A DNA stretch of 64,000 nt from Rosellinia necatrix. Its lineage: Eukaryota > Ascomycota > Sordariomycetes > Xylariales > Xylariaceae. Location of the stretch: positions 4,378,001 to 4,442,000 of the forward strand of contig JAGYVD010000005.1 in the NCBI GenBank assembly GCA_021209875.1, written 5' to 3'. The stretch's first letter is position 1, and each line of letters opens with the position of its first letter. Below the pieces are notes generated by a model. The model did no database searches and had not been told where the DNA came from. It worked only from the letters and a program-made list of their open reading frames with translations. Shown here in pieces: positions 2,220 to 61,690 of the stretch. The position numbers were made by a program, and so were the translations under genes.

Positions 2220-2355
2220 GCCGCGCGTATCGACATAATACACCTCGTATGCTACCGCTAGGGCCCCACACATCTCGCACGGCATCTCCCGCTAGCTATA
2301 TCGTCTACCCTGCTCGTCATCCCGGCCGCCTCCTGTTCCCCCTGGCATCGTCACC

Positions 2356-5300
2356 ATGTTTTGGAGATTTGGCGGTTACGCCAACATCTCTACCATTGAT
2401 ACCATCCTCGACAAGCCCGACTTTCTGCTCGAGGATTTGCTGGACGAGAGTGACCTGATCCAGGAGCTGAAACAACACAACACCAAACTTCTCGAGTACC
2501 TCCGCCAGGACCGCGTCCTCGCCAAGCTTCTCGACTATGTCGTCGCTCCCAAGCCCGAACCCATAGAGAACCCCGAACACGGAAGCGACTCCCGCGACGA
2601 CGACGATGTCACGAAGAAGGGACGGTCCCTAGGTCTGCCCTTCGGCCGCCCCCGCGCCTCGTCAAGGACCACCAGCGACGGCAACGACGAGGACGAGGCC
2701 GAAAAGAAGCGTAATCGCTATGCCTACGTCGCCGCCGAGGTCTTGTCGTCCGACAACTGGTCCATCTATGAGTCCCTCATGGAGAACCGCGCCCTTCTGT
2801 CCGGTTTCTGGTCCTTCCTCACCCTGCCTGCCCCACTCGATCCCCTCCAGGCCAGCTATTTCACCAAGGTTAATGAGTCGCTCTTCGACAAGAAGACCCA
2901 CGACATGTTACACCTGCTCAGATCCATTGATGATGCCGTTCCGAATATGCTACGCCACGTCGACTGCCCGATGATTATGGATCTCTTGCTCAAGATTATC
3001 AGTCTCGAGAGGACTGAGGACGGCCAGGGTATTGTTGAGGTACGTATGCTGGCCTTGTTTTCTATCCCTTCCTGACCTTGTGCAATCCCCGCTGACACGT
3101 GCGATGGCCATGGTGTAGTGGCTCTACACGAAGGATGTCATTCCTGCGCTTCTTTCCTTTCTTGGGCCTGAGCATAGCTGGGCCACACAGACCGCCGCAG
3201 GCGACTTCATCAAGGCCATCATCACCGTCTCGGCCAACGCGTCGCAGAACGAACAGGCTTGCATTGGCCCCAACGAGCTCACTCGCCAGCTCGTCTCCGG
3301 GCCGTGTGTAGAAAGGATAATCGGCTACATGCTTGGCGGCGGGAACCCCCTGACCGTTGGCGTCGGTATCATTATCGAGGTTATACGAAAGAATAATTCA
3401 GATTACGACCCTGATGTGGGGGGTGATGCGAACGCTCAGCCCTCCAGCCGTGATCCCATCTACCTCGGCACTCTTCTCCGTCTGTTTGCCGAGCACGTTC
3501 CCGACTTCATGTCGCTAGTCCTCAATGCGCCAGCACAGAAGCAACGCCTCGACTCCACTTTTGGGGACAAGATCGAACCCTTGGGCTTTGATCGATTTAA
3601 GACCTGTGAACTCATGGCCGAGCTACTACATTGCAGTAACATGGCCCTTCTCAACGAACCCGGCGCCGAGCAGGTTATCGCGCGCCGAGACGAGGAGCGA
3701 CGCCGCTTGCGCCTCGACGGACGCCTTACCTCCGCGCGAGGGGAGGAGACACACTCTTCGGAGGACCTGACTATGCGTACCCGTCATTCTTCTCCCGATG
3801 ATGGCCGCCGGCTTGAGGTGACCAACGCATCGGACGACGACGGCTTCGAGGAGGTGACCCCATCCGGGGAAATGACGGAAGATACATCGCACGAGTTCAT
3901 TAAAGCGGAGGACGAAATCGCAGCTACCGCGGCCGCATCCTTCCTCGATAGGGACGATGACGAATTTGTAGATGAGCCTCTCAGCTCGCCACGGCTCCAC
4001 GTTCAAGACGCAACAATGGATGAGCCTCACTTCGAGATTCCCGAGCTAGTGGTCGCTCCCTTGTCTCCCAAGAAACCGGCAAAGATGTTATCAGCCTCGT
4101 CGCCACCAGTCGTGGGGCCGGGTGCCACGCCAGGGATTTCAGCACCGACGGAAATGACGGATTCAACCCCTACATCGACCGAGGCAGCTCATCCAGCTAA
4201 TGAGGCCGGTCCAGGACCAAGCCGCAGTATCCAGACAAGCGTCACTGAAGTCTCTCCAGAAGAGCCAACCGTGATGAAGGATGATTCCCTAGCGGAAGAC
4301 GCCACGGCAATTGAGTCTCCAAATGTTGAACCGGTACCTGCTGCCGAGAGCTTCGGGTCGGGTGTTTCCCAGATGGCCCAACCTGGCCCCATAGTTCAAG
4401 ACGCAGAGATGGAATCTCCATCTCGCGAGGATCAATCCCTCGTCAATAACCAGACGCCAGATCCAACCCCTTCAGCTGATGCGGCAGAGCAGGTCGAACC
4501 CGTTGTCGGCGATTTCTTGAAGAAACAGTTCGTCGGGAACAATGTTGTCCCCACCATCTTGGTAACGTCCCACTTCTACCCATCCATGTCTTAAATAATT
4601 CCGAGGTAAAATCTAACCAGCCGCTCAGTCTTTCTTCTTCCGATATCCTTGGAACAATTTCCTTCACAATGTCGTCTACGATATTGTCCAGCAAGTGTTC
4701 AACGGGCCCATGGACCGTGGTTTCAATCCTCATCTCGCTATTTCCCTGTTCGAAGCCGCAGACATCACCAACGCCATCATCAATGGGCAGACATCTAGCG
4801 AAAAGTCACAGGCTCAGAATAAGACCCGTATGGGGTTCATGGGGCATCTAACGTTGATCGCCGAAGAGGTTGTCAAGTTTACTGAGCGAAACCCTCCTGA
4901 GCTCTTATCCGATCTTGTTCTGGACCGTGTCATGAGCCAGGATTGGATCAACTACGTCGAAGGCGCCCTGGCGGAGACCCGGGAGAGGGATAATGCCGTC
5001 CTAGGTGGCGTGAGGCCGGAAATGGCCCTAAGCAATAGGCCGCAAATGGGTGGCAACCTCGGAAGTATGGGTCTGAGTAGCCTTGGGCTTGGTGGTAGCC
5101 AAGGCAGCGGATCCAACGCCCTTGCCGAAGCTGGCCTTAATGGCGGTGGTAACACGATGGACTTGGCGGATCACGGCAGTGGCAGCAGCCTCGGCCCTTT
5201 TAGCATAAGCTCGGGCCTTCTTACTGGCTCGGGATTCGGAAGTTCTAGTGACGAGGACGAAGACGAAGCTGAGGATAATGAGGAGGACGTGAATAACGAG

Positions 5301-6609
5301 GTTAGTAGCCCCTTTCACTATGTTCAAAGCGGTGCGCGTAGTGCTAGTTATCGCGCTGGCAAGCGGGGGCGCTGGGCTTAGAGTCATCAACCCAGCGGCC
5401 CTACCGGCCTACCATTCCCTCCTTATTTTCTTCAAGCGCTCTAGTATACTATACCGCACTCGCAGTCAAGCGTTGGATGTAGATTACTTCACTAGGATAG
5501 AGACATGGCTTCAGTCATATGCTCTCTGCCTGTGTTAGTGATTACAGTTTCGCTTTTTATGGTTCATGTGTGTAACCGGGCCGGGGGAACTAAGTAGTTC
5601 CTACCTCGGGGCACCGTTCATGCGCTCTGCTCCCGATTGAGTAGCGGATCAGGGCTGAGCAGATGACCCCGGCGATGCGATGGTGAAAGCTGTGATGCGA
5701 GTAATGGGTAGGAGGGATCCATCTATGCCGAACGCCATCGCCCCGGGCCATTTACTTGCTTCTTTGAGAGTCTTTTCACGCGTTTCTCGCATCCGAGAGT
5801 CCCGGCTAACACCCTCCTAGTTTCGTGCTTACACAGATCCACTCCATGCATCGTCCTCCATGGATCCGCCTTCGATCCCCCCGCCGCCGCCTCCTCCACC
5901 TCCGCTGAACATCCCACCTTCGCGCGCCCGCCTGCAGCTGGCTGCGCGGCTCGCTATGCACCAAAAAAGTACAGCTTCCTCCTCGGCCCAGCCGGCGGAC
6001 GCAGAACCCGAAGAAGGGCGGGGTGATACGGGAGGGGAACAAGGGACGGAGAGAACCATCCGCAACCCCTTCGAAGATGATGGCGAGGACGAGGTCGATG
6101 ATGATAGCGATGACGGGCTGGGCGAAGACGGAGGAAACATGGACGCCTGGGATTCGAGACCGTCGCGTGGGGGGTGGTGGCGCAACACGCTCCAGAGGAA
6201 TCGAGAGAGGTTCGGAGACGGGCGGGACGACTCCGATTCGGAAAAGGAGGACCGCGCGGAGGCGGACGACGACGACGACGACGAGTTTGGCGATTTTGCT
6301 ATGCCTGACGCAGACAGCGGGGAAAGTAGCCACAGTAAGGCAAGCGTGATCGTCAAGCCATTGCCGGTACACCCCCCATCTCACAACCCGAAAGGCTCGG
6401 CTTTCACGAGCCTATGGCCCTTCGGCTCCAAAGAGAAGGAGAAGCCGAAGGGCGAAGAGGCGGCGGTGGCGACTACGTCTACAGGAATGGCAGGCGATGC
6501 GGCACGCGAGGTAGAAGCGGGCGAGCACGACACCAAGATCAAGGCAACGCACGAGGCGGCGCGCAGGACAAGCATTGAAGACCCTGACGAAGACGAGGTG
6601 GTCATCTAG
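2356..6609 (+). CDS. SIT4 phosphatase-associated (SAPS) family protein, four exons
   Basis: This is a SAPS-family regulatory subunit of the Sit4/PP6-type protein phosphatase, known to act in cell-cycle progression and nutrient signalling. Inferred exons are 2356-3039, 3119-4561, 4629-5300 and 5821-6609, giving about 1,195 aa. The family's N-terminal signature is clear: MFWRFG at the start, then the region before and after DKPDFLLEDLLDE. The SAPS helical repeat region runs through exons 1-3, with a long Ser/Pro/Glu-rich insert in exon 2 (about residues 380-700). All junctions join in phase. Exon 4 opens with FRAYTDPL, then a polyproline run, acidic blocks, SLWPFGSK and an EDPDEDEVVI end, which matches how I remember the tail of filamentous-fungal SAPS proteins. 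The last intron is unusually long (520 nt). If it is not spliced, translation would stop at 5381 and give 959 aa. The ATG sits in a good CACC context. The fit of exon 4 is from memory of the family and has not been aligned. Confidence 0.9.
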
Positions 6610-10065: not shown

Positions 10066-13000
10066 ATGGCCAGCCCAGCATGGTCGTCCCTCTCAGCCTT
10101 GCCTCGACTCGATACCTCCACCTACGCCCTACGAGATGGCCCCGAACAGCATGAGGACGCCCGCGAGAGCAGGTCGGCCCAGGAAGCCAGGCACCTGCCC
10201 CGTAAACCCAGCAGTTTCTTATCCGCCGCAGACTCCGCCTCGGTGGCTAGAACAGATAGAGGAAGTACCCCGGATCTCTTCAGATCCGTTGCTGATGCGC
10301 TCGGCGTCGACAGGAACGAGCTGCCGCAGCCCTTTTATGGCATTCCTTGGGCACACGATGACGACGATGACGACGGGTACGATGACGGTGACGGTGACGG
10401 CCGAGAGAGAGACGGCGGTGGCGACCAGCACGGCGGGGTCCACGAGACATCATCCACCTTCATACGCCGCCAGCCCGGCGCCGTTCCCGTGCGCCGGGAT
10501 CGTAACGATTCCGCAGCCTCTGCCGTGTCGCCTTATTCACAGCCATACCATCCGGGGATCCATGGGCGCAACCCGGTTGCCACCGAATCCGCTGCCCCCG
10601 CGAACGGTCACCCTGGTCGGTCTTCCGCCGAGCCATATGGCGACACGTCCCGTCCGAACCATCTACTCGTAGAATCCGCTTGGCAACCCGTGACATCTAA
10701 GGATTTCGTTGAGGGTCGTGACCCTCGCGCTGTGCCACTTCGGCCCGGAGACGAGAGGAGTGGGATGGCATTTGTCGAGCGAGAGAGTATGACGCCGCCG
10801 AGCCCGTTTCCCTCCTCGGGCCGTCCCAGGCTGGCATCTATCGTCAGCCCATTAGAGCCGAGCTCACCAGAGAGCAGCGTCAAAAGCCCCAGGTATCAGG
10901 GGTCGGTGTATAGCAATCCCCCGGCTATCCCACCCAAGGCTCCTCGTAGACTACGTAATGATGTCGAACAGGCCCTCACGTCGGATAGCGGTGTATCTAG
11001 AGCTATTGTAGTGAAGCCGAAAGCCGGGCTTTTCGAGGGGCACCTCGTCGCGCTGCTCACCCTGTCGGATGGAGGACCCGGTGGTTCGTCGGATCGCATT
11101 TGGAAAGAAGGCAGCGAGATCAAATTACAGAATGCTTACTATACAAGAAATCTGCCCTCGATCCGGAGAGCTGTCGAGTCCCAACTTGCGCCCGAATCTA
11201 TCCCGAGCGTCTGGGTTCCCCTAGAACAGATGCCCCTAAATGAAGGGGGCCAGATTCTCCGCAGAATACTGCAGACATGGATACAAAATGCGAATGACGA
11301 TTTATACCGACGCATCGTGTCTATCGAATCGAAGAGCGCATTAAGGAAGCCGTCAACCACGTGGGAAAGGCGTCTTTCCAGGGCTGTGAGCAAGGTGCTG
11401 CGCGTCGAGCAGGACGATATCGGCATGAATCTGTCCTTTGCCAATCTAGGAGGAGACCCGCATGCGGCAGAAGAACTCGCGGTGCGCTTCCAATCGCAAG
11501 GCATCTCCATCGAAGCCCGACATGTAATGGAGGCTCCGAGCTTGACCGATCTGGCCGCGCTCGCTAACCCTGAGGAGGCGCGCTCTCAGAAGCCAGAAGA
11601 AATCGTGTCCGGGATGTTCGACCTGTCCCCTATGCAATACCTTTATTTCTACACACCCATGGGAAAAGATACGGCACGGCGGAAATCGAGCGATGGTGAT
11701 TACCGGTTCAATCAAAGCATATTGTTGCGGTTGAAACAGAGCATCGGAGTAGAGGACCTACGAGCCGCCATCGAGGCCGTCGTAGACCACCATAAAATGC
11801 TGAGGACCCGTTTCCGCTTCGCCAACGGGTCTTGGTGGCAGTCGACCGACCCGACCACCTCCACTTCATACCAGTTCGCACACCACCTCGTCGGTACGAA
11901 TGCAGAGCTCGAGTCTGTTGCCACGGCCGCCCAGTTTGCCATCAACATTGAACACGGCCCCGTCTTCGCGGCCCACCACTTTCACACCAACGATGGTTAT
12001 CAGCTCCTTTACTTGGTCGCTCACCACCTCGTTGTCGACCTCAAGTCGTGGCAGGTCGTGGCGAACGATCTGGAGAGATTACTCACGGATGGCCATCTCG
12101 TCTCCCAACATTCCCTTACCTTCAAAGAATGGACCCTACACCAAAAGCACCGCGTCCAAACGTCAACCGACGTCATCGACCTCGCATTCGAGCTCCCGGC
12201 GCGTAACTGGGAGTATTGGGGCGTCAAAGATACCCTGAACACGTATGGCAGTACAGTTGCCTTCGGGTTTACCCTCGAATCCGAGGTGACGTCTGTGCTA
12301 GAAGCGGCCAATAAAGAACTCAGGACGGACTCCTGCGACATATTCATGTCGGCCCTCCTCCTTTCTTTTGCGCAAACATTTCGAGATAGATCGGCACCCA
12401 TTCTCTGGAATCAAGAGCACGAGCGAGCCACCCTGGATACGAATCGTGATATATCCGCGACGGTAGGCTGGTTTACTTACCTATGCCCCCTTGTCGTGAA
12501 TGTGTCGCCGACGGATGATGTCTTCACCATTTCGAGTCGCCTCAAAGACGCGCGCCGAGCCGCTGCCAAGACTAGTTTATCACATTTCACAGCCAACCTC
12601 ATCGACGCCCCATCGGCAGAGTCTTTCGCGTTCTCTCACTGCCCTCTCGAGCTCATCTTCACATACGCCAGCGCACTGCAACAGGTGAAGAGTCAGAATG
12701 CCGTCTTCGAAGAGCTTGAAATCCCGGGCAAGGCTATCGGCTCTGATACCGCGGACGTTGGACAATCGGTCGGCCGAATTGCCATTTTTGAAGTGTTCGT
12801 CTCGATGGAAGAGGGCGAGGCGAAACTGAAGTTCTTGCATCATCGAGACTCAAAGCATCCAGAACAGATACAGAATTGGATTCGTACTTATGAACGAGTC
12901 CTGCGCCAATCTATCGGGAGGCTGAAAGACTATGCACCGGGCCTTTCTATGTCAGACGTTCCCTATTTGGGCGTCACGCCCGAAGGATTGAACCAGCTCA

Positions 13001-16000
13001 ACCGGGACGTCCTCCCTCGGTTAAATCTCAATACGAATAACGTCGAAGATATCTTCCCCGCCACGGCGTGCCAGCAGTGTGTTCTAGTTCATCAATCGTT
13101 GTTGCCCGGTAGCTCGCTCGCTCAGGTGACATATGAGTTGAGTACGGTCGGCAGCGCCCTCGATACGTCGCGCATCTGCAGTGCCTGGTACCAAGTCACG
13201 CAACAGCACCCCGCTATGCGAACTCTGTTTTCGCCTAGTGTCCTGACAGAGGGCCTCTACGATCAGGTCGTACTACGCAACCATTCCCCTAACATGTTGT
13301 TTATCGAATGTGAGGAGGTAAGGGGCGCAATGGCCGCGATCGGAAACGTCCCGCCTTTGCAACTCAAAGAAGGGATTCCTTGGCACCGACTCATTGTCTG
13401 CCAATCTGTTGGAAAGGCCTACCTGAAACTAGAGGTCAGCCAAGCCATCTGTGATGTAAGCTACGCTAGTCAACCTGAACCCCAGCCCCTTTTTTATCTT
13501 ATATTCTCATTCATCGTGTTTCCTCGGTGTGCTTAAATCTCTTGGTATTTTCTTATTTTTTTTTCCTCCGGTCTAAATCTAACCCACCATACAGGTCACA
13601 AGCATTGCTATCCTCTTTAACGAGCTCGAGCAAGTCTACTTTGAAGGACACGCAGCCACCATAAACCAACTCTCGTTCCCCGAGTACTATCAGCGCCTGA
13701 AGCTCACCTCATCGAGCGTCGGGTTTTGGAAAGAGAAGCTGCTAGACGTCAGACCCTGTCATTTCCCTCGTCTGCTTTCGGCCGGCACTACCATTGTTGA
13801 ATGGCAGACAATTCCCATTAATTTACAGATTCCCTTCCAACGTTTACATGATTTCGCGCGATTCTATAAAGTGGATAAGTCCACCATACTCCGAGTCGCA
13901 TGGGGGATTTTGTTACGAACATTCCTTGGTGTGCAAGATGTGTGCTTCGGGTACCGTACTTCGGGCCGGGACTTGCCTATCACAGGGCTTGAGAGTGCCA
14001 TCGGGCCATTTTCCAGAGTTCTAGTTGGTAGAACGCGTGCGCTAGCTAACCAGACCATCGTTCAACTCCTCCGAGATGCCCAACTTGAACACCGAAAAGC
14101 CCTGCAACATCAGCATGTACCCATGAGCATGATCGAGCATGAGGTCGGCACAAAGGGCAAGCGGCTCTTTAATACGTGTGTGTCGTTTAGCTATGAAGAT
14201 ATTTCCGCCCAAAGCCCGCCAAACCGCAAGCTGTCCCACAATAGCTCCATGCAAGCCTCCGAATACGACATCAACGTAGACTTTAGTGTTCACGGCGGTA
14301 ATCTGACAGTCATCGTAGGACACCGTATCCTCGCGCAGCAACAAGCCAACACCGTTGGTCACGTTCTTGGAAAGGCCGTCGAGACCATCCTCGAAAGTCC
14401 TAGCGCTACGGTAAAGGAGTCAGACCTATTCACGGTTCACGACCACAACCAAATATTAGCATGGAATAGCATGCCCCAAATCGACGTCCAAAGTGAACAT
14501 CTCACCACACTGATTTCCGCTCAGGCGTACAGGAACAGCGACATCCAAGCCGTGTGCAGCTTCGATGGAACACTGACTTACGCTGAACTTTGCAAGCTTG
14601 CTAGAGGCCTGGCTCAGTACATGCTGAACCTAGGTGTTCGGCCCCAGATGCCACTACCTGTCGTGGTTGATAAAAGTCGATGGGCTATAGTGGCCATGTT
14701 GGCTGTTTTAATGTGAGTGCTGCGCCCTAATACAAAAAAAGAAGAAGCTTACAATACCTCCCCCCCCTTCCTTGGCTAAATTTCCTTTTTAGGGTGGGTG
14801 GCATCTTAATACCTATCGACTCCGAGGCTACAGATATGTTCCCCTGGATCGTCCAGGTCATTCATCGGGGTATCATCTTGGCTTCAGACAGTGTTCGGAG
14901 CTACTTTGAAAGTTCAGGATGCCCTACTATCGCGGTGAACGAGCAGACTATCATGTCGCCGTATGTGCAAGCAGTCGAACTGCCGATGCCTATACCAACA
15001 AGACCACACGACATTGCTTGTATCTCCCTAGCTCTCACAAGCCCCAAGAGTTGTAAGGCCGTGTCATATAGTCACGGGGCCCTAGCCACTTCTTGTGCCG
15101 GTCAGGGCCCTACGCTAAGAATCAACCCGTCAAGCCGAGTAATGCAACTCTCCTCCTACAGCGTTGATGTCGCGTTGTCCGAAATCTTCACTACCCTCGT
15201 CAATGGGGGCTGCATCTGTATCCCCTCCTGCCATGAGAGGATTTCCGGTTTTACAGTAGCTGCGCAGCGTATGAGAGTGAACTGGACATACCTCACGCCA
15301 CCCCTCTCACGGAAGTTAGATCCCGACGCCCTGCCAGATATGGCCGTGGTTTGCTTTCGTGCTACGCACCTCGATGCCGAGATTTACTCACAGTGGGCAG
15401 GTAAAGCGAAAGTGGTCCTCGTCTATGGTTCCGCAGAAGCTTGCCCACTAGGCCTTTCGGCAACGGAGATGACAGGAACACTCGTAGTACCAGGTTTTGG
15501 CAACCCCTTCTGTGGAAATTTCTGGGTCGTGAGCCCAGAGGACCACAACCGACTCATGCCAGTTGGCTCCATCGGGGAGCTTGTCATTGGAGGAGCTACC
15601 CTTTCCAGCGCCAGCTCGTTGGATATGGAAAACCTGGATTTCGATATCCTCATCAGGAAGAGCATCGCTCGGGCCCAGTCCCTTCTCGAGCAATCTGGTA
15701 GTCGCCTTCTGAAGACAGGCCGCCTAGTACGCTACCGAGAAAAAGGCGAGATCGAATTCGTCATGCCAGACGGAGACAGGGGAGAAGTTAGAGGGAAGTC
15801 CTTCCGTGTGTCCGAAATTGAATCACAGCTTCGACAGTGCATTGGCGGAGGCGTGGACGTCGTTGTTGAAGCGGTTGCCTTTAACGATGCTAACTCGACT
15901 CCGGTCTTCACCGTGTTTCTCGAACTTGGAGATGAGTGGCTCGAGGGCAGAGATGATCTCACCAATCTTGACGATATGACACGACAGAGGCTATTTCATT

Positions 16001-18456
16001 ACAAACAAACAGTCAACTTAGCTCTTCGCGATGCGATTCCACTTCCATTGGCCTACGTCCCCGTCCGACGACTACCCCTGACACCCTCATTACGAGTAAA
16101 TAGGCGAGGCCTTCAGAAGTTGATCGCGGGCCTGTCGCGGCGGCAATTGTTGGCCCTGGCCGAGGTTCAGAACTTGCGCGATATGCCACCCGTTAGTTTC
16201 CAGCCGTTGCCCTTGACACAGGTGGAACAGCAAATGCGGGCTCTCTGGGCTCAAGTTTTGGCCATCGAGGATCAAACCTCCATAACAGCCAAGGACGGGT
16301 TTATGACGCTAGGTGGCGACATCGTGATGGGCCACCGCCTTGTTATTATATGTCGCCAACGAGGGATAGAAATCTCTATTCTCGACATTCTACAGAACCG
16401 CACCTTGTCTGAACTGTGTAAGGGGCTCGCCAGTTTCCAAATGCCTACAGCGAAGGCAGGCCCTGGTGCACCAAACGGCGCAGCACAGGCGTTGACGGCG
16501 CCGAAATTAGGTTCCGACAGGAGCGTCATTGAGGATGTATCGGAAGCGTCTTCTCTTCAGACCATGTTCGTCGAATCTGCCATGTTACAGGCACGAGGCA
16601 ATGTGTCCTACTTCATCCTCAGCGCTACAGGATACCTCGATTGGCACAAACTTGAAAACGCATGTTTTATGTTGACCAAAGCTCATCCTATCTTGCGCAC
16701 AGCATTTGTATCTCATAACCGTCAGGTTTACCAGACGGTTCTTCGGTCTCACCGACCCGAGTTTTTACGATACCAATGCCAAAACTGGCGTTTGAATAGC
16801 CAAGCCATGAAGCTTATCAAGCGAGATCAGCCACTGCCTATCGACTTCCGCCGGCCCGTCACCAAGTTCTCATTCCTCGACGCGGGCAAGAGCTCTATCC
16901 TGGTAATGCGGCTCTCACGCGCCCAATACGACGATCTCTCGATCCCTATCTTGGTCCGTGACCTCGGCCGCTTCTACCGACAAACCGGCCCCATCACGCA
17001 AGGCACTGGTTTCTGTGAGGTGATCAGAGCGGTGCGCTCTACTTACGCTAGCGGAGCTACGGAATATTGGCGGTCTCTTCTCGAAGGCGCATCTATAACG
17101 CAAGTTGTCTCGCAGCCTTCGCTGCCGGTCGCAAATTCGAGCCCGAAGACGCTGCAGCAAAAGATCCCTATCGGATCTTTACAGGACTTCGATATCCCTT
17201 TTGAATCCATCTTGAAAGGTGCCTGGGCCATTGTATTGTCGAACTTGTCTGGCACTGATGACGTCGTGTTTGGCCATATGGTTGAGGGTAGGCATTTGAG
17301 TCTAGCCAACGGCCAAACCATCTCCAGCGTCGTTGGGCCCAAGGGCAATGTAATACCTGTTCGAACGAAGATACCGGATTTTCGCGTCGCCCCCCTCGAA
17401 TATTTCAAAAATATACAGAGCCAATACGTCGATAGTATTCCTTACGAAAACCTACAGACAGCCGACGTTATCCAGAATTGTACGATATGGCCGTCTTGGA
17501 CTCGCTTCAGCACTGTCGTCCACCACCAGAGACAGTCGGAACGCTACAAGTTCCTCAATTTCACCATCGGCGAGGCTACTTGTACGCTTGATATGATAGG
17601 TTTGAGCCACGAGGACTCGGATGTTTTCGTTCAGACTATCATGGCCGGTGCGAAACACGTCGAGGTATCCGTCACCTTTTGTGACAAGAAAATCCAATCC
17701 TTTTTCGCCGAGGAAGTTTTGAGGATGCTCTGCTCCACCATATCCGTTCTCACTAATCCCGACTTCGTGATGGACCCAATGATGCTAAAAGGGCTCAACG
17801 ACAGCTATACGACCCCGCGCATCCCACTGCCAGCACCCAAGCGCGAAAGCAGCGTCCTCTCCCCCGTTGTATCGGTCGATCCGGACCACTCTCGAACCGC
17901 CCACAGCATCATTGCCACCGCCTGGGATACCGTCTTTGGCCCACAGACCCTTGAGGTAGCCGATATCCGGTCGGTGCCCTTCTACGAGATCTGGGGCGCC
18001 CATATGCCGGCGGCTGAGTTAGCCCGCTACTACACGCAGAAGGTGCCACGGTTCCCCGGATTTAAAGAAAGCGTCTACACGACGGAGGAGATCATCGACC
18101 ACCCAACCATGATGCAGCAGTACGAGCTGATTATTGCAAAGCAGCAAGAGACGCAGCTACGGCGCCATACGAGTTTCTTAAAACGCAACCCTTCACGCAA
18201 CCAATCAACGCGCAATCCATCAACGTGGGGAAAGAATTTCCGGAAGCTCACCGTGGGGACGGGAACCGGAACGAACGACACCACGCCAAATACCCTCTCT
18301 GCGCCTCCAAGGCTCCATCCGCATCGTGGGTTAAATCCCCACGGAAAGGATTCATTCGAGTCACTTTCAACACTCGGCAGCATAGCTGATGACCGCGAAC
18401 GCATTTCTTCTCCGCCTACATCAGCTGATGGTGCCCATAGGAAGATAGCGTACTGA
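10066..18456 (+). CDS. Degenerate NRPS-like megaprotein, three exons, about 2,723 aa
   Basis: Inferred exons are 10066-13455, 13595-14712 and 14793-18456. The first in-frame ATG is 10066. Domains in order: a disordered acidic N-terminus (1-310); the C-terminal part only of an adenylation (A) domain (about 311-430); a carrier (T) domain (435-505); an epimerisation (E) domain (517-970); a condensation (C) domain (989-1400); an A domain (1408-1953); T (1970-2045); C (2080-2500); a terminal T-like domain (2540-2610); and a basic tail. Catalytic motifs are lost. The three T sites read GGD-P465, GGD-I2013 and WGA-H2573 where a Ser is expected. C1 has SQAICDV (1125-1131) for HHxxxDG and C2 has SRAQYDD (R2212 for the His). 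The A domain lacks the Gly-rich A3 loop (LTSPKSCKA), has TGRL for TGDL, and has no A10 lysine. Only E keeps HHLVVDL (653-659), but its EGHGRE motif is QEHERA (783-788). There is no thioesterase or reductase domain. The frame is intact over 8 kb, so this is not a decaying pseudogene. A non-biosynthetic role is an inference. Confidence 0.85.
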
Positions 18457-27273: not shown

Positions 27274-29319
27274 ATGTCGAGCAAGGATGAGAAGGAGGGC
27301 AGCCCTCCGGCCTATGCCAATGCCACCGAGGCTGGCCATGACGGCCCCGTGCGCGCGGGCGACTTCTATACGCGAAATGGCTTGAACTTGGAATCGTTCA
27401 AGATGCGTGACTACGGTCAGGGTGTTGTCGAGTTGGACCGTAGCATGAAGCCCCGGCATTTGCACATGATCGCCATTGGAGGTTCAATCGGTGCCGGTTT
27501 TTTTTCGTCGGTTCGGGTGCTGCGCTGAACACTGGTGTACGTATATGGCGACCTGATGCGCTTTTCCCTCTACGCCGTCCCCCCGGCGCACGGAACGGGT
27601 GCATTTCCATGGCATAGAAGATCATGTTATGTTAACACGTATCTCGCGATAGGGCCCCGGCTTTCTTCTAATCGATTTCCTGATTATCGGTGTCATGATC
27701 TTCAACGTCGGTATGTAGTCATCTCCCTGGGTCCCCCCCTCCCCTCCCCTAGCGAGGTAATCCCTCGGGCTGGCCGCTTTGGACAACCCTTTGAAAACTA
27801 ACCCAATGGCGATAGTCTATGCTCTTGGTGAACTCGCTGTTATGTACCCTGTCTCTGGTGGTTTCTACACGTACGCTACTCGCTTCATCGATCCCTCGTG
27901 GGGTTTCGCGATCGGCTGGAATTATGTCGCTCAATGGGCCGTTGTCGTACCTCTGGAATTGACAGTCTGTTCCATCTCGATTGCGTACTGGAACAGCGAA
28001 ATCAGTCCTGCTGTGTGGATCACCATCTTCTGGGTTTTCATCATCATCGTTAACATCTTCGGTACGCTCGGTTATGCGGAGGAAGAGTTTTGGTCGTCCG
28101 TAATCAAGCTGAGCGCTACCGTCATCTTCCTCATCATTTCGTTCATATTGGTCCTCGGCGGTGGTCCATCCGGCGGCCTGTATTCGGAGTACTGGGGCGC
28201 GCGGTTATGGTATGAGCCCGGTGCTTTTGCCAACGGCTTCAAGGGCTTCTGCTCCGTCTTCGTCACCGCTGCCTTTGCTTTCAGCGGAACCGAGCTTGTT
28301 GGTCTGGCTGCTGCCGAGTCTGCCAACCCTTCCAAGGCTCTCCCTAGCGCCATCAAGCAAGTCTTCTGGCGTATCACCCTGTAAGTCTTCCATATAATAA
28401 ACCTTGCCCGCCTAGTTGATGCACGCGTGCTGACAAGCGGGCCCTACCAGGTTCTACGTCCTAGGTCTTCTCTTCGTTGGCCTGCTCATCCCTTACAACG
28501 ACCCCCATCTACTCAACGCCAGCTCAAACGATGTTGCTGCTTCTCCCTTCGTGCTGGTTGGACAGTATGCTGGCCTTTACGGTTTCAATCACTTCATGAA
28601 CGTCGTGATCCTGATTTCCGTCATCTCTATTAGCGTGTCCGGTGTTTACGGCGGCAGCCGTACCCTGACGGCTCTTGCTCAGGAGGGCTACGCCCCCAAG
28701 ATCTTCACTTACGTAGACAAGAGTGGCCGACCCCTCTTCTCGGTCATGCTCATTTTGGCTTTCGGTGCCCTTGCCTACGTCGACCTGGCCGCCAGCGGCG
28801 GAGAGGTCTTCTCCTGGCTGCTGGCTCTGTCTGGTCTTGCCGCTCTCTTCACCTGGGGCTCGATTTGCCTCGCCCATATTCGCTTCCGATCCGCCTGGGC
28901 TTACCACGGCCACACCCTTGACGAGATCCCGTTCAAGGCAGTTGGCGGTGTCTACGGATCGTACCTTGGCCTGGTGCTCATTTTCTTGGTCCTGGTTGCT
29001 CAAGTAAGTCGATAGCTTTCTCCCGGTCGATTAAACTCACACAGTACTAACAAACAACTTGTAGTTTTACGTCGCTGTTTCCCCCATCGGAAAGGACGTC
29101 GGCGATGTCCAGGGTTTCTTCAAGACCTACCTCGCTCTCCCTGTAGTCCTCCTTTTCTGGGCTATTGGTTTCATCTGGAAACGGCAAGGCTGGTTGAGGA
29201 CTGCTGATATGGATGTTGACTCAGGTCGCCGTGAGCACAACTGGGATGAGATCAACGCCTACCGCCAGCATCTGGCCACCCTTCCTGCTTGGAGACGCCT
29301 CATCAGCACCCTCTTCTAA
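27274..29319 (+). pseudogene. General amino-acid permease, five exons, frameshift in exon 1
   Basis: A plasma-membrane amino-acid:proton symporter of the fungal AAP (YAT) family, most like GAP1-type general permeases. Inferred exons are 27274-27536, 27653-27710, 27816-28380, 28451-29003 and 29065-29319. The cytosolic N-terminus leads to the TM1 signature HMIAIGGSIGAGFF. After the break the conserved GSGAALNTG, then the GPGFLLIDFLI, VYALGELAVMYPVSGGFYTYA and FSGTELVGLAAAES regions follow in order. The C-terminus ends in WRRLISTLF. Exon 1 contains a run of eight T at about 27498-27505 where the family's reading needs six (or nine). As written, the frame stops with TGA at 27526-27528. All later junctions are in phase with each other. 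With the frame corrected the protein is about 563 aa, a normal size. A homopolymer sequencing error is as likely as a real inactivating mutation, so pseudogene status is provisional. Confidence 0.85.
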
Positions 29320-30609: not shown

Positions 30610-32614
30610 ATGCCCTCACGAAAGCGCACGTAAGTTATAACACCACGGTCGACATATGCGGATTGTTCTTAGCTGTTAACTCTGTCGGCCTAGCTCTGCC
30701 ACCGCCCCAATCTGTACCCCAGCTATTGCGGGCCAACAGGCCCTAAGCAAGGAGCAGAAAAGTAGCTCCTCGCAGCGACAGCGACAACAACACACGAGAA
30801 GTTCTGTCCAGGGCAAGCTGTTTGAACGACAAAATTCCCCGGACAAGATTTGGCAAAAGCCTCGGGGAAGCAGAGGAGGAGTACCTAAAGTCTCAAATAG
30901 CAATAGCGTACGAGCGCACCAAGACGCGCACCCTCGTACCCCTAGCCTTGAAAGAGTATCAAAAAGCAGCATCGGGTATTACGTCGCAGATACCGAAGAC
31001 AGCGCGTCCCTTGCTGAGGCGGATCCTGTAGAAGCTTGGTACAGAGACATCGGATACTTACCTCCCATCGATGAATCCACGCTCGACGTGCTGGGGCAGA
31101 TCCTATCCCCCTTCGCAATGTCTGAACTCAACAGGAAGGTCAACAGAACTAAGGTAGATTGGACTCTAGGACTCAATGACAGAAATGTGACGATAGCTTC
31201 ATGCTTGCCCATCGACCCGTTTCTCGCCAATTTTGATAAAATGAAGCGCCTTCGGGAGTCCAGGCCCGAAATCCAGCAGTTTAGTCCACATGATGAAGTA
31301 ACAAAGACTCACGCCGACGAATGGAGGCTAGACCTCAAGAAGGCCATCGAGGACGAGCTAGAAGCAACCTTTCAGCGGACTGTGATGATGTCCATGTTGG
31401 ACCGATCCCGATTAATGTACAACCTGAAGCACGGTAATCACTCGATCCTAGACTTTGCTGTTGAGAGCGCGTGGAGCTGCCCTCCCATGCCGACACGGGC
31501 CCTACGAAAGGTAATGCCGGACCCCAAGCGGATGCTTTCATGCCCCAAACCTGATATATCCGTCGCTTTTCGCCTGCAATCCATTGTCCAGGCCAAAGAC
31601 CTGGACGTTATGCCTGAGGCCACAAGGAGGATCATGGCTTACGAGGCACAGGACGGGACTCGCACTCAACGGGCCTTCCATTTCCTAATGCTTGAGGCTA
31701 AGAATGCAAACAAGACATCAAACGATACGGATGGCCATCTTCAGAGTCTGAACAGTGCCAGTCAATCTCTACATTGCTTGTACGAGTTCTTCAACGAGGC
31801 TGATAGAGAAGAGGTAGAATGCAACAAATCTTGTTGCAAGCGTAACGCCAGTTCCATCCCACCTGATAGCCAAGAAGTATTTCCTACGAGGAAAGATACG
31901 TCTGCTGAGGAAGACACGTTCGTTGACCAGTTCTTCAGGAAAGTTAGAGTCTTCACGGCAATACCAACAGGGAGGGCCATTACAATCCGGATGCACCGGG
32001 CCTGCCCTACATCAAATCACACGTGTACTCCAAACGAGGATGGGCCTCCCTCGAGGGAACCAATTCTTCCCGATTATCCGCTTCAGTTCGAACACAACGA
32101 GCTGATCGAGCTCACGCGCGATGACTACTCCAGAGAGAGGCTCGTGCATATTTTCGAGAAAATCATGGCTGATTATAGCATCGGATGGCTCGGACCTCTG
32201 TTGACGAAGGCGGCTGAGAAGATCGCGATGAAATTCAGAAATTGGAATAATATCCATGGGATGCAATATGAGTTCGACATACGACACTACTCACACGGGC
32301 AGACAGCCCCGAAAAGTGTTCAGGGTTCGAGAGCAGGCAGTCGATCCACCGAGCGATCATCAGTATCAGCCACGGCAGATCCTCAATCATTAGGCCTAGC
32401 CCACCAAGCCGGCTCCAAGGGACCAGCTGATCCCGCACTGGTTGCATTTGTACCAGACGATTCTGCACAAGGTAATTCCGCGCCAGACGATGCCGCACCA
32501 GCCCCATCCTCTTCCACTGCTCCTGTCACGGTGAAGAAACAAAGAGCATTGAAAGGGAAGAGAAAAGCGTCGGACAAGACAAGCAAACAGCCAAAGAAAA
32601 GCAAAATGCACTAG
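30610..32614 (+). CDS. PD-(D/E)XK nuclease-like fungal protein, two exons
   Basis: The long frame is open from 30680 but has no ATG before the conserved part. A 20-nt first exon (30610-30629, MPSRKR then a split Thr codon) with a GTAAGT donor and an acceptor at 30692-30693 joins in phase and supplies a start. Exon 2 is 30694-32614, giving about 646 aa. Residues 1-95 are a basic, Gln/Ser-rich disordered region. Residues 110-450 form the conserved part, with KPDIS (D294) and, 47 residues on, LEAK (E341, K343). This spacing fits the PD-(D/E)XK nuclease fold seen in widespread fungal proteins of unknown function, some found near repeats. The C-terminus is low-complexity and ends in a Lys-rich nuclear-localisation-like tail. 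Function is not established. Nuclease activity is an inference from the motif alone. It converges on the Dal5-type transporter, with an AT-rich repeat remnant between them. Confidence 0.7.
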
Positions 32615-38733: not shown

Positions 38734-41652
38734 TCACTTCACCTCACCCCTCTCCGTCTCCCCGAAAAGTGTGCCTAGAAGAGCACCCCATTCTGTCTTC
38801 TCCGCGCGTCGAAACACACCGTTTGTCTTGCGCGACTCGACAACAAGCACATCGCCCTCGCCACCGAAATATGCCAAAACCCCGCCTTTCCCATCCAAAC
38901 GGGCGGTAAGTCGAAAGTAATGTTTGCCTAATTCGTTGGCCTTGCGGATGGGAATGAACTGCAGGTCGTTCTCCTGGCACCAACTTTCCACTTCGTCGCG
39001 GAAGGTAGGCTCGGTGACGTCCATAGACTGGGCGGGCACCTTGGGCTTCTTCTGCTCCTCGGGCTTTTGCTTGCTGGGACGGGACTTGGTGGACGGGCGC
39101 GCGGGCCGTTTGTCGGGACGAGGGAGGCGATGCTTCGCTTCGTCCCCAAGCTCTAGCGCCTGTTCAATCATGGCAGTACCTCGTTGAAACTCGGCCTTGA
39201 TACTCTCGTGGGACGCAATCTCGGGCGGGAATACCTCATTATGCCACCACTCAAACCAGGCGCCGATCTCCTCGTAGTTGGCCTCGTCACTAGTGAGCCA
39301 CTGGTGTAGTACATCATGCCACATGGGGAAGACTTCTGTAACAACAACCTCGGCTATCATGGAAGATGAGATGACGTCGACCCATTTGACAACGCCCTGT
39401 AGCATTTTCAGGTACGGTTCCTGGTCGCCTGGGTCAACACGGAAGTTGGTCCGTAGATAGCGACCCATGCTGGGAAGTATGTGATGCATGACCAATGGCT
39501 TCCACTGATCCTGTGCTTGGGAGGGACGGAATATATCTTGCCATGGCTTGAGCCCAGGAACCACCCCCCGATCAAACTGCCAAGTATCGATGGTTTGTCT
39601 GAATTTTCGTCTCACGTCGGAGACTAGGCCCGTGCCTTTCGGTTCAAGGTGATGGGGAGGGAGATGTTGGAGCCAGGGGAATAACCACAAGTGTGGTAAT
39701 GTAGTCCGCTCCTTTTTGGGCCTCCAGTTCGTGATGGCGTCTTCGAGTCTCCGGACAACCTGCTCTAGCAGTTGAGAGCGAACGAATGCGGGAAATAGCT
39801 CTTCCCATCTGTCTAGCACGGCGAGGAGAGGCGTCGCGTCATAGATGTCCCAAGCCTGTGATATAGCGGTAACAATTTTAGGGAACACTAGCTTGTATAT
39901 CATGCTCTCATAAGGCGTAGTTGACCTCCCACGGAAATGGTTTGGGTTATCTATACCGTCGTGATCCCGTTTAGAGACAACGCCCCCGTTGGTTGCCTTG
40001 GTATGTATGCCGAGGAGGATTTTAATACCGATAAGGTCGTTTGCGAAGTTGCCTAGATTAGGATCCTCCAGGGGCTGCCAACCCTGGGTAGCCTGGGCCA
40101 GAAAGGGGTGAATGCTGGCTACTGCAATGCTGGACAGCTCTTCGTTATAGACCGAAGCCGAGGCTTCAGCTTTCTTTAGTCCAGAGATGATGGGGTCCCA
40201 CTGCTGCTCCCGTGCGGCGAGACAAACCTCATCGAGGACGAGAGAGAACATTTGGAGCGACGAGAATTCACTCTCCAGCTCATCCACCTCTTGTTGACGT
40301 TGAAGAGCTTCCATATCCACCCATGCTTTTCTCTCTTCTAGTGTCTTCCATTCCTCCACGAAGGCAGCAAGGTCACCTTGCGCGCGCCTCGCCAATTTTC
40401 GAGCCTCCGTCTGCTCTACCAATTCGGTACCCGCTGTGGGGGTCAGAAGGCCGGAGCCAGATGTGAGCAGCCTCTGGTCTCGCCCGGTCATATCCAGAAT
40501 AGGGGCAAACGCGTCGGGTATATGGAGCCCCGGTGCGGCTTTCTGAATATCGCTGACGGTCATGTATTTCGGCTTGGAGCGTTTTGGTGTGCTCATACCA
40601 CTCCCTGAGCCGCTTTCCCCTGCCTTCTTCTTCCTCCTGTCGTGCTTGGCTTTCTTACGTTCTTCGTCGGAGTCACTGACCTCCTCGCCTCGTAAGCGCG
40701 CCTGCCGTTTTTCTTCTTTGAGTTCCTGCGCGGATTTCTCCCGTACAGTACCAAGACCGACGTTGCCCTGTGGTCGCAATGTGGCCTCGATGATGCTCGC
40801 ACGGCCCTGGGCATTGGCACCGAGGCCTTTCCCCTCGACATATCCCATCTTGGCCATCATGCGGGCGGCAAACGATTTGGACTTGGAGCCACCGCCACCG
40901 GCGAAAGCACTCGGCTTGGGGGTTTGGGGTGCTGAAGATGGCTTCTCATCTTCTAGATCTGGTTTAAGGACGGGTTCTTTCGCGGACGTTGGGACGAAGC
41001 TTGTCCCTAAGGGGGTAGACCCATCGTATTTTGCCTTCATGGTATTCGTCCATTGGCTGGGCGTGTTTTTTACCATGTTTGGGGCGGCTTGTGCTTGGGA
41101 GGTTTGGCCCCAGCCGAATCCAAGTCCTTGCGTTGATGATCGGAAACCCAAGCCAGCCCCGGTCATCTCCTCGTCTTCGTCTTCATCCTCGTCCTCGTCC
41201 TCGTCCTCCCCTTCTATCTCTGCCGCTTTGTCTTGCTCAGCTGGTGTGGCATTTGCTCGTTGGGTGCCCAGGCCGGCGCGACGTCCGGATAGGTCATCCT
41301 CGTCCTCATCTTCGTCGTCGTCATCGTCGCCCCGATCATCATGTCGATCCAACTGTTCCTGGCCGGCAGACACGAACGTGACGTTTTTGTGGCGGAGATC
41401 TCGCTTAGACTTCCAGCGTCTGTTAGGAGCATCATTATCTTCACTATCCGAAGCAAATATACCTAAGGCGGCGCTCTCTTTCGTGTTGCGACCAGTCTTA
41501 CGGCGTTTGCGTGGATTGAAATCGAGAAAGTCGTCGGCCCGGGGATCAACAGAAGGCTGGGCCAGACCGTCGTCGTCGTCGCTTTCGTCGCCTTCCGAGG
41601 ACGAATAGGCCGCCGCATCAGCCTTTGAAATATTGGCATGGTGACGAGGCAT
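38734..41652 (-). CDS. TFIP11/Ntr1-like G-patch splicing factor
   Basis: Orthologue-type of TFIP11 (human) and Ntr1/Spp382 (yeast), a nuclear protein that recruits and activates the DEAH helicase Prp43 to take apart post-splicing complexes. Single exon, 972 aa, start ATG at 41652. The N-terminal TIP_N-like part includes the basic NPRKRRKTGR segment (about 46-55) and long Asp/Glu runs. The G-patch is at about 258-300 (AARMMAKMGYVEGKGLGANA). A charged linker follows. The GCFC-type domain covers roughly 440-700 and includes the WLFPWLQHLPP block. The C-terminal domain ends near residue 972. Nothing is missing. The acidic tract at about 41170-41220 is a (GAG/GAC)n trinucleotide repeat and could vary in length between isolates. 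The gene runs in the same direction as the Psf3 gene about 0.9 kb away. Confidence 0.93.
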   Translation of the reverse strand: MPRHHANISKADAAAYSSSEGDESDDDDGLAQPSVDPRADDFLDFNPRKRRKTGRNTKESAALGIFASDSEDNDAPNRRWKSKRDLRHKNVTFVSAGQEQLDRHDDRGDDDDDEDEDEDDLSGRRAGLGTQRANATPAEQDKAAEIEGEDEDEDEDEDEDEEMTGAGLGFRSSTQGLGFGWGQTSQAQAAPNMVKNTPSQWTNTMKAKYDGSTPLGTSFVPTSAKEPVLKPDLEDEKPSSAPQTPKPSAFAGGGGSKSKSFAARMMAKMGYVEGKGLGANAQGRASIIEATLRPQGNVGLGTVREKSAQELKEEKRQARLRGEEVSDSDEERKKAKHDRRKKKAGESGSGSGMSTPKRSKPKYMTVSDIQKAAPGLHIPDAFAPILDMTGRDQRLLTSGSGLLTPTAGTELVEQTEARKLARRAQGDLAAFVEEWKTLEERKAWVDMEALQRQQEVDELESEFSSLQMFSLVLDEVCLAAREQQWDPIISGLKKAEASASVYNEELSSIAVASIHPFLAQATQGWQPLEDPNLGNFANDLIGIKILLGIHTKATNGGVVSKRDHDGIDNPNHFRGRSTTPYESMIYKLVFPKIVTAISQAWDIYDATPLLAVLDRWEELFPAFVRSQLLEQVVRRLEDAITNWRPKKERTTLPHLWLFPWLQHLPPHHLEPKGTGLVSDVRRKFRQTIDTWQFDRGVVPGLKPWQDIFRPSQAQDQWKPLVMHHILPSMGRYLRTNFRVDPGDQEPYLKMLQGVVKWVDVISSSMIAEVVVTEVFPMWHDVLHQWLTSDEANYEEIGAWFEWWHNEVFPPEIASHESIKAEFQRGTAMIEQALELGDEAKHRLPRPDKRPARPSTKSRPSKQKPEEQKKPKVPAQSMDVTEPTFRDEVESWCQENDLQFIPIRKANELGKHYFRLTARLDGKGGVLAYFGGEGDVLVVESRKTNGVFRRAEKTEWGALLGTLFGETERGEVK

Positions 41653-42531
41653 GGTAATGGGGGTTGGTGGCGGTGGCGGTGACGGTGATGGTGATGGTGG
41701 TGGACGTGGAGATGGTATTGTCGGGACTGGTTGCCTTGATACCTGTGCGGTCGCGACTCGGATGTAGGGGAAATGTCTACAAGAACATGGGGAGGAATGC
41801 GTCTGCGCGGTCCTGCTATCCCTATGGCGATGTGAGCTGTCGCTGCCGCATGGCGCTCGACGCGTTGGGTGGTGGCTTGGCGGCGGAATAAAAAGTTGTT
41901 GAAGCGTGCATCGGCCCCGATGATGTCTTGCGCAACCCGGGTGCTCGATGTAGCACTAAAGGCCAGTGGGGCTATGTGGGGCTATGTGGGGCCGTATACC
42001 TACCTGTATCAGGTATGCACCTAAGTTACAGCACAACTCCTATAGCCACTATATAAGTACTAAACTTCCCAAGTTAGTTACCTACTGAAGTAGATACCTA
42101 CCTAGGTCGGCTGTAAATTAATACTAAGGACTCCGTATTTAAGCATATTAACGACATTTGTTCTAATTCAAGTGCGAGTACCCAGTGCTCGTGCTACCCG
42201 AACGCTGTAATGTGGCACTTATATCTACTGCAGTGGTGAAAAGCCAGGTTCTAAATTAAAACGGTGAAAAAATGGCAACATGAGGACGAAAAGTGACCGC
42301 GTATACGCGTATACGGGTGTATTTCGTAGATTTCCCCACACACTGGCAGGGCTTATACTATGTTGTACGGCCTGTGATATACCCACAAGGGCCTTCGTTC
42401 AGAGAGCGCGTACCGCCTCGGTTGGGGATACCCTTCGCTTGTGGGACTGATAGACCTGACGGAACAATTCTCGCTCATTTTTTTTGGTCTGTGGTCAATG
42501 GTTCTCGTGGGGGGATCAACCTAAGGAGCCT
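41653..42531. other. Intergenic region between G-patch gene and Psf3
   Basis: Starts with a (GGTGAC/GGTGGT)-rich segment at about 41668-41715 that is probably 5'UTR of the G-patch gene. It then has TAGGTA/ACCTAC runs at 41990-42110 and ordinary non-coding sequence. No gene is supported. Confidence 0.5.

Positions 42532-47693: not shown

Positions 47694-47735
<42 letters not shown>
47694..47735. repeat. (TG)n microsatellite
   Basis: About 21 uninterrupted TG units, the longest dinucleotide repeat in the window. Confidence 0.95.
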
Positions 47736-47737
<2 letters not shown>

Positions 47738-47866
47738 TATAGTATAGTGTAGTGTAATTAGAATGAGTGAGAGCGGCTTGCCCACTTGGGCTTCGATCGA
47801 ACCACAAGCACCGTGATCGGTGGTGGGTGGTGGGAAATGGAGGGGACTAAAGACTAGCGCATCCTC

Positions 47867-47922
47867 GCCCGTCGCCCGTCGCCCGTCGCCCGTCGCCCGT
47901 CGCCTGTCGCCTGTCGCCCGTC
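47867..47922. repeat. 7-bp minisatellite, eight units
   Basis: Eight tandem copies of GCCCGTC. Units 6 and 7 read GCCTGTC, a C-to-T change shared by neighbours, which suggests duplication after the mutation. Confidence 0.93.
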
Positions 47923-48117
47923 GACTGCGGCCATGATCACGAGATAGTGGGCAGTGAGTTGAACCAGAACCCGCGCGGTGCCGGGACGATGAGGAGAAGG
48001 AGACGGCGAAGGAGATGAGGAGGGGCAAAGTAGACGGATGGACCCTGACATGGGATGCATAAGATAGACGGAGCCGATTGGCGAATCTCGGACGGCCTGT
48101 CCATCTCTCTCCCTACC

Positions 48118-61551: not shown

Positions 61552-61690
61552 GTAAGTTCATACATACATACATACATACATATATACATACAAATATACG
61601 TATATACATATATACATATATATATATATATATGTACATACGTACATACAGTAAAATACATACATACGTATGTATGTATGTATGTATGTA
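61552..61690. repeat. TACATA/TATG low-complexity tract
   Basis: About 140 bp made almost wholly of TACA, TATA and TATG units. The left half (CATA-rich) and right half (TATG-rich) are largely complementary, so the tract could fold into a long hairpin. Confidence 0.85.

What the first reader, a model, noticed from the sequence alone, without database searches (positions are those of the whole stretch)
10066..18456. Intact 2.7-kresidue NRPS-like protein whose assembly-line chemistry is gone
The gene keeps an open frame across three exons and about 8.2 kb of coding sequence, with recognisable domain order (partial A, T, E, C, A, T, C, T). Yet the carrier serines, condensation histidines, adenylation loop and A10 lysine are all replaced. 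Neutral decay over this length would be expected to leave stops and frameshifts, and none are seen. Selection therefore seems to hold the protein while allowing its catalysis to be lost. This points to a re-used scaffold, for example a binding, regulatory or structural role, or a helper to another NRPS. I do not know a described fungal system of this kind.
Basis: partly seen in the sequence, partly recalled or inferred. Interest (0 to 1): 0.88.

Follow-up and report, generated by a model that had tools for sequence, protein, structure and literature searches.

The report
Conserved catalytically dead peptide synthetase
A very large fungal protein built like a peptide-making machine has lost nearly all the residues such machines need for chemistry, yet relatives in the same state are kept intact across many orders of one fungal class, so it probably does another job such as holding other proteins together.

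Summary
The gene (10066-18456, three exons, 2723 aa, Rosellinia necatrix) is a single-copy NRPS-derived protein: A1 remnant-T1-E-C1-A-T2-C2-T3. I collected 257 relatives with the same domain order; those with names span many orders of Sordariomycetes, their tree follows the orders, and they share the losses. The E-domain catalytic Glu is absent in 254 of 254, the C2 His in 255 of 255, the C1 His in 236 of 246, the A7 Asp in 253 of 257, the T2 Ser in 239 of 242. Canonical relatives nearly always keep them. Eight structural residues beside these sites show no change on a tree of 44 substitutions per site, so this is not decay. The A10 Lys is Arg here but Lys in most relatives. The family includes Fusarium graminearum FGSG_10523 ("NRPS 3"), treated as an NRPS without known product in the papers seen. 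Best explanation: an ancient pseudo-synthetase kept as a non-catalytic scaffold. C2's [RK]xxxD[DE] resembles the HRxxxDD of recruiting X-domains. Partners are unknown; a conserved A-domain pocket hints weakly at ligand sensing.

The parts
10066..13455 (+). Exon 1 (residues 1-1130)
   Evidence: same protein length in P0001
13456..13594 (+). Intron 1, GT...AG, 139 bp
13595..14712 (+). Exon 2
14713..14792 (+). Intron 2, GT...AG, 80 bp
14793..18456 (+). Exon 3 with stop codon
10066..10935 (+). N-terminal tail (residues 1-290), low complexity, with an acidic tract; 160 of 239 long relatives show by pattern an extra carrier-like domain (T0) near the N terminus, of which only a first-helix remnant is seen in this species
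   Evidence: remnant judged by eye
10936..11355 (+). A1 remnant: C-terminal subdomain only (residues 291-430)
   Evidence: only one AMP-binding stretch in the protein, at 1439-1774
11356..11580 (+). T1 carrier domain (residues 431-505), Ser position is P465
11581..13020 (+). E domain (residues 506-985); HHLVVDLKSW intact, catalytic Glu replaced by Q783; model pLDDT 88
13021..14479 (+). C1 domain (residues 986-1425, contains intron 1); catalytic His is Q1126
14480..16209 (+). A domain (residues 1426-1975, contains intron 2); A3 loop, A7 Asp and A8 Arg lost; pocket residues D1628, Y1669, F1691, P1721, L1722 nearly invariant in the family
16222..16449 (+). T2 carrier domain (residues 1980-2055), Ser position is I2013
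16540..17829 (+). C2 domain (residues 2086-2515), terminal-condensation (CT) type; motif SRAQYDD in place of SHxxxDG; model of T2-C2-T3 pLDDT 86
17887..18129 (+). T3 carrier-like domain (residues 2535-2615), Ser position is H2573
   Evidence: Pfam shows only two PP-binding stretches
18130..18456 (+). C-terminal tail, low complexity, no column 95% identical among 67 aligned

Best explanation
The gene encodes a pseudo-synthetase: a former dimodular NRPS (A-T-E-C-A-T-CT-T) that lost adenylation, condensation, epimerisation and release chemistry, and nearly all carrier function, before the sampled orders of Sordariomycetes split. It has since been kept under purifying selection as a non-catalytic, multi-domain binding scaffold. 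Shown here: the shared losses, a tree that follows the fungal orders, predicted folds of E and C2 that match solved E and CT domains, conserved structural residues, and no biosynthetic gene recognised beside it. Inferred: it makes no peptide; its condensation-type domains act as docking surfaces, as the X-domain of bacterial glycopeptide synthetases does; and the disordered tails connect the scaffold to partners. The partners (other synthetases, P450s, signalling proteins) are unknown.
Against: The E-domain catalytic His is kept in 216 of 254 and changes more slowly than most columns (12 steps; faster than 20% of E columns). The E Glu (11 steps, mostly Gln), C1 His (11), A7 Asp (13), A5 Glu (13), A10 Lys (14) and T3 (15) columns are also slower than their domain averages, so those sites are still constrained in some way. 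T1 keeps a Ser in 22 of 178 and A10 keeps Lys in 182 of 255, so some relatives retain fragments of the machinery. No partner, localisation, expression in this species or mutant phenotype is known. dN/dS was not measured. The protein library holds predicted proteins only, so decayed orthologues would be invisible. Table 2 of PMC3814326 has 'no' for NRPS 3 expression in F. graminearum under its conditions. In PMC9239088 none of the knockouts named with a phenotype is NCU04531, the probable Neurospora orthologue.
Confidence: 0.68

Rival explanations
1. A helper in trans: the dead modules dock with an active NRPS or another megasynthase (for example a siderophore NRPS) and supply interaction surfaces, so the protein still belongs to a peptide pathway.
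For: Predicted E and T2-C2-T3 folds are confident. Canonical NRPSs with E domains exist in the same genome (28-30% identity; motifs).
Against: No biosynthetic gene was recognised among 20 ORFs of the window tested with Pfam, 10 of which gave a hit. A fixed partner common to the family was not looked for.
Confidence: 0.14
2. Residual or altered chemistry: the E domain (HHxxxD kept) or the A pocket catalyses something that needs neither carrier Ser, P-loop nor the E-domain Glu.
For: E catalytic His kept in 216 of 254. A-pocket columns: D1628 256 of 257, Y1669 251 of 255, F1691 254 of 257, P1721 248 of 257, L1722 252 of 257.
Against: The E Glu is gone in 254 of 254. The E His is replaced in 38 of 254, in named relatives of Fusarium, Monosporascus, Coniochaeta, Sodiomyces, Dactylonectria and Xylaria, while the protein was kept. 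ATP-site columns drift (median 42 steps against 28 for the rest of the domain).
Confidence: 0.12
3. A slowly decaying pseudogene that has not yet collected stops.
For: Catalytic residues are lost; no expression was listed for the Fusarium orthologue under the conditions of PMC3814326.
Against: Neutral change at 0.05 per site gives about 13 stops, and 0 of 100 runs stay open. 239 of 257 family proteins are 2400 aa or longer (predicted proteins, so open by construction), with identity down to 32% over 99% of the query region (P0111).
Confidence: 0.03
4. An ordinary NRPS whose motifs were misread.
For: Annotated in databases as putative NRPS.
Against: Motif positions were anchored on solved structures: GrsA E domain, TqaA CT, LgrA, and on up to 14 canonical relatives in the same alignments. 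Adenylation model far under its cut-off, with canonical controls above it.
Confidence: 0.03

Closest known systems
Fusarium NRPS 3 (F. graminearum FGSG_10523; P0221)
   Same: Same E-C1-A-T2-C2 order, shared losses, one clade with the window's protein. Named NRPS 3 in Table 2 of PMC3814326 and placed in the EAS subfamily in PMC6480918 (passages).
   Different: In the passages seen it is treated as an NRPS with no known product; none says its catalytic residues are missing. P0221 and many, not all, Fusarium relatives have also lost the E-domain His (Q or E).
X-domain of bacterial glycopeptide NRPSs (PDB 4tx2, 4tx3, 6m7l)
   Same: Condensation-type fold used to recruit P450s; motif HRxxxDD resembles the C2 motif [RK]xxxD[DE].
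TqaA terminal condensation (CT) domain
   Same: Closest solved fold and sequence to C2.
   Different: TqaA keeps SHxxxDG; here the His is gone in 255 of 255.
ChNPS6-type NRPS with one degenerate A domain
   Same: Conserved fungal NRPS with a degenerate A domain (passage of PMC2823734).
   Different: NPS6 makes siderophores and has one complete A domain (same passages); here no module is complete.

Membership tests
Canonical NRPS | Adenylation domain with ATP-binding motifs A3, A7, A8 | tested here: not met
   A7 Asp 4 of 257 (outgroup 14 of 14); A8 Arg not among the family's eight commonest letters (outgroup 14 of 14); A3 loop letters scattered (outgroup 12-14 of 14 per column). TIGR01733: three family members 141-170 bits, cut-off 317.4, three canonical controls above it
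Canonical NRPS | Carrier domains with phosphopantetheine Ser | tested here: not met
   In this protein T1 P, T2 I, T3 H. Ser in the family: T2 3 of 242, T1 22 of 178, T0 0 of 160 found by pattern, T3 at most 2 of 238
Canonical NRPS | C domains with HHxxxDG | tested here: not met
   C1 His 10 of 246, C2 His 0 of 255
Canonical NRPS | E domain with HHxxxD and catalytic Glu | tested here: not met
   HHxxxD met here; Glu 0 of 254, outgroup 10 of 10 (position anchored; catalytic role recalled)
Canonical NRPS | Lies in a biosynthetic gene cluster | tested here: inconclusive
   20 ORFs tested, 10 with a Pfam hit: SAPS (3), amino-acid permease (2), weak MFS, G-patch/TFIP11-like, PSF3, AA9, superoxide dismutase
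Fusarium NRPS 3 orthologue group | One clade with conserved domain order that follows the fungal orders | tested here: met
Pseudoenzyme (conserved fold, lost catalysis, kept by selection) | Catalytic residues replaced, fold kept | tested here: met
   residues; predicted folds of E and T2-C2-T3 only:
Pseudoenzyme (conserved fold, lost catalysis, kept by selection) | Purifying selection (dN/dS below 1) | not testable with these tools
   No orthologue DNA; protein-level evidence only
Pseudoenzyme (conserved fold, lost catalysis, kept by selection) | No enzymatic activity in vitro | not testable with these tools
   needs purified protein
NRPS X-domain | HRxxxDD at the C active site | tested here: inconclusive
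   C2 has SRxxxDD here; [RK]xxxD[DE] in 161 of 238
NRPS X-domain | Recruits P450 enzymes | not testable with these tools
   no partner data

The most novel reading that the evidence does not exclude
A complete modular megasynthetase was converted once, at or before the origin of the sampled Sordariomycetes, into a class-wide non-catalytic signalling or recruitment hub. Its A domain may still bind an amino acid or similar ligand through a nearly invariant pocket while the ATP site drifts, so that an assembly line became a nutrient sensor and scaffold.
Probability: 0.25. Interest if true: 0.92.

Novelty: new variant of a known kind. Interest (0 to 1): 0.74.

Why it matters
Genome mining counts such genes as peptide synthetases with undiscovered products. 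If this family makes no peptide, an orphan NRPS found in many fungi needs no missing metabolite, and the question becomes what a dead assembly line of about 2700 residues does. I know of no whole NRPS (as opposed to a single domain) described as a conserved pseudoenzyme, and my paper searches showed none. Gene removal in a laboratory fungus could test it directly.

Tried and rejected

A-pocket idea, with its controls: the nine pocket columns (GrsA numbering and mapping recalled, and chosen after I had seen that the region was slow) are slower than the rest of the A domain (p 0.0018) and than ATP-site columns (p 0.0035). Against the local region the difference is small (p 0.036), and against direct neighbours it is not significant (p 0.33). 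Four of the nine (positions 236, 239, 299, 322 of GrsA) vary. I therefore keep it only as a hint. The large residues Y1669, F1691, P1721 and L1722 may equally fill the pocket.

N-terminal LPRxDT-like motif: seen by eye in several relatives, but loose patterns found it in only 80 of 239 and 89 of 240, so I make nothing of it.

Led nowhere: Rfam and tRNA scans of the window (nothing); paper searches for a pseudo-NRPS or degenerate NRPS of this kind (nothing on this family recognised in the listings); PMC10455296 (no whole-word match); PMC10967133 (the NRPS3 matches shown were longer names); PMC8403587 (12 of 39 places shown, no such protein mentioned there); PMC10796067 (R. necatrix genome paper, no occurrence of NRPS).
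Full report
What was checked. The gene lies at 10066-18456 (+) in three exons with GT-AG introns and encodes 2723 aa. The best database match is a putative NRPS of Rosellinia necatrix with the same length (P0001) and 19 differences, so the genome is that species or very near it. Pfam recognises three Condensation, one AMP-binding and two PP-binding stretches. Aligned to relatives, the order is A1 remnant (C-terminal subdomain only), T1, E, C1, A, T2, C2, T3.

Motifs in this protein. Missing: the carrier Ser of T1, T2 and T3, the catalytic His of C1 (Q1126) and C2 (R2212), the A3 loop, the A7 Asp and the A8 Arg. Not missing: the E domain reads HHLVVDLKSW. Its other catalytic residue, the Glu of EGHGRE, is Q783; the position was fixed by alignment to the GrsA E domain, PDB 5isw. 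That this Glu is catalytic is recalled, as are the A-motif names. C2 aligns best to the TqaA CT domain, SHSQWDG against SRAQYDD. The A10 Lys is Arg here, but Lys in 182 of 255 relatives.

Relatives. Three protein searches each listed the best 120 of 1402, 860 and 1067 matches, 283 different proteins in all. Of these 283, 257 have E, C1, A and T2-C2 in order (255 by rule, plus P0211 and P0221, which had fallen just under my 30% limit). Twelve more look like partial family proteins and were left out of the counts, and 14 are other NRPSs used as canonical outgroup. The listed names span Xylariales, Sordariales, Coniochaetales, Magnaporthales, Diaporthales, Glomerellales, Microascales, Lulworthiales, Thyridiales and Hypocreales; order names are recalled except for four species looked up. 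Numbers are lower bounds, and the sample is chosen by similarity to three queries.

Shared losses. Family against outgroup, counting rows with a letter at the site: E first His 254 of 254; E catalytic His 216 of 254 (11 of 11 in outgroup); E Glu 0 of 254 (10 of 10), Gln in 220; C1 His 10 of 246, all Colletotrichum (14 of 14); C2 His 0 of 255 (11 of 12); T2 Ser 3 of 242 (9 of 10); A7 Asp 4 of 257 (14 of 14). T1 Ser is kept in 22 of 178: 21 of the 22 belong to Xylaria, Nemania, Apiospora and their neighbours, one is Zalerion. An extra N-terminal carrier domain, T0, is found by pattern in 160 of 239 long relatives and has Ser in none of the 160. T3 has Ser in at most 2 of 238 (the listing shows only the seven commonest letters). 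In the window's own genome, one search lists 54 condensation-type stretches, 4 of them in this gene; I fetched 47 of the other 50 (three do not cover the motif or barely do), and 43 of 47 keep the catalytic His. The NCBIfam adenylation model (cut-off 317.4 bits) gives 141, 144 and 170 bits for three family members, and 380.6, 662.7 and 758.7 for three canonical controls, the last two over two A domains each.

Descent. In a tree of 61 E-C1 sequences (55 family, 6 outgroup; quick method, LG+G4) the family is separated from the outgroup with support 100*. The tool warned of long end branches among the outgroup rows. Eight of the nine labelled fungal groups with two or more rows are each one clade; the ninth, which I called Amphisphaeriales, needs two changes because Microdochium, which NCBI puts in Xylariales, stands next to the Xylariales rows. 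The simplest reading is one ancestral loss and vertical inheritance.

Selection. Random substitution at 0.05 per site would give about 13 stops. On a FastTree tree of 240 sequences with total length 44.2 substitutions per site, parsimony needs 0 changes at H653, D658, R787, D1130, Y1714, R1816, E1846 and G2011. The catalytic columns are mixed. Some run at or above their domain average (A8 Arg 71 steps, T2 Ser 69, A3 positions 42-47, T1 Ser 38); the C2 His column (31) is near the average of 32. Others are slow (E His 12, E Glu 11, C1 His 11, A7 Asp 13, A5 Glu 13, A10 Lys 14, T3 15), which suggests that a residue there, old or new, is still constrained. Columns at least 95% identical are most frequent in E (62 of 473) and A (57 of 528), fewest in the tails (2 of 102 and 0 of 67). 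Within the species 8 of 19 differences fall in the first 430 residues and 11 in the other 2293. No dN/dS was possible.

Surroundings. Of 20 ORFs of the window tested, 10 gave a Pfam hit: a SIT4-associated SAPS protein (three pieces), an amino-acid permease (two), a weak MFS match under its cut-off, a TFIP11-like G-patch protein, PSF3, a superoxide dismutase and an AA9 enzyme. No secondary-metabolite enzyme was recognised. The gene is single copy: the next matches in the genome are at 28-30% identity, canonical E domains by their motifs.

Literature. FGSG_10523 is NRPS 3 in Table 2 of PMC3814326 (passage seen), with no product, and 'no' in the columns for H3K27me3, nitrogen repression and expression in kmt6 and wild type. 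PMC3694855 (passages) reports F. fujikuroi NRPS3 cluster genes expressed with 6 mM glutamine. PMC10455376 (passages) lists NRPS3 among 13 NRPSs present in all ten F. solani complex genomes. PMC6480918 (passage) places it in the EAS subfamily. In Neurospora, NCU04531 is the NRPS of cluster 18 in PMC9239088 (passages and section 11). That it is the orthologue is my inference by elimination. The abstract and passages name the knockouts with phenotypes, and NCU04531 is not among them; I could not see whether its knockout was among the 126 tested. In the searches listed under Tried and rejected and Why it matters I found no statement that the family is inactive. Most subscription papers are not in the library.

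Mechanism. The best reading is a scaffold. The closest functional precedent is the X-domain of bacterial glycopeptide synthetases, a condensation-type fold with HRxxxDD that recruits P450 enzymes (passages of PMC11546977). C2 of this family reads [RK]xxxD[DE] in 161 of 238. This is a likeness, not membership, since C2 is structurally nearest to a CT domain. A bolder reading is that the A domain still binds a ligand: pocket columns equivalent to GrsA 235, 278, 301, 330 and 331 are nearly invariant while ATP-site columns drift. Regional and neighbour controls weaken this, and a filled pocket would look the same.

Verdict. I call it a new variant of a known kind: pseudoenzymes and single dead NRPS domains are known, but a whole conserved dead synthetase is not one I know of.

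Noticed in passing
window 2296-5381 (+): SAPS (SIT4-associated) protein in three ORF pieces; the nearest gene recognised upstream.
   Followed up: partly
window 27761-29015 (+): Amino-acid permease gene (Pfam AA_permease in two ORF pieces).
   Followed up: partly
window 30680-32614 (+): Open frame of 644 aa without any Pfam match.
   Followed up: no
window 38734-41955 (-), 42532-43080 (-), 44180-44530 (+), 53662-54468 (+): TFIP11-like G-patch protein, GINS subunit PSF3, superoxide dismutase (N-terminal part) and AA9 enzyme: ordinary genes.
   Followed up: partly
window 10066-10935: In this species the extra N-terminal carrier domain of many relatives looks reduced to its first helix, followed by an acidic low-complexity tract.
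   Followed up: partly
P0093, P0103, P0108 (Diaporthales), last ~800 aa: These relatives carry a long low-complexity C-terminal extension with a piece near its end that is the same in the three printed (VSPLTPVERAMLYKQQ).
   Followed up: no
L011, L028, L036, L037: Four of 47 other condensation-type stretches of this genome also lack the catalytic His (P or G instead); three read [HL]PLVxDG, and L011 and L037 have a stop inside the matched stretch.
   Followed up: no
P0267, P0065: Two relatives carry unrelated product names in databases (siderophore regulator, glycerophosphoinositol permease), probably misassigned or from neighbouring genes.
   Followed up: no
window 47695-47735, 47865-47923, 61559-61667: Simple tandem repeats (TG, a 7-base unit, a CATA-like unit).
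   Followed up: no
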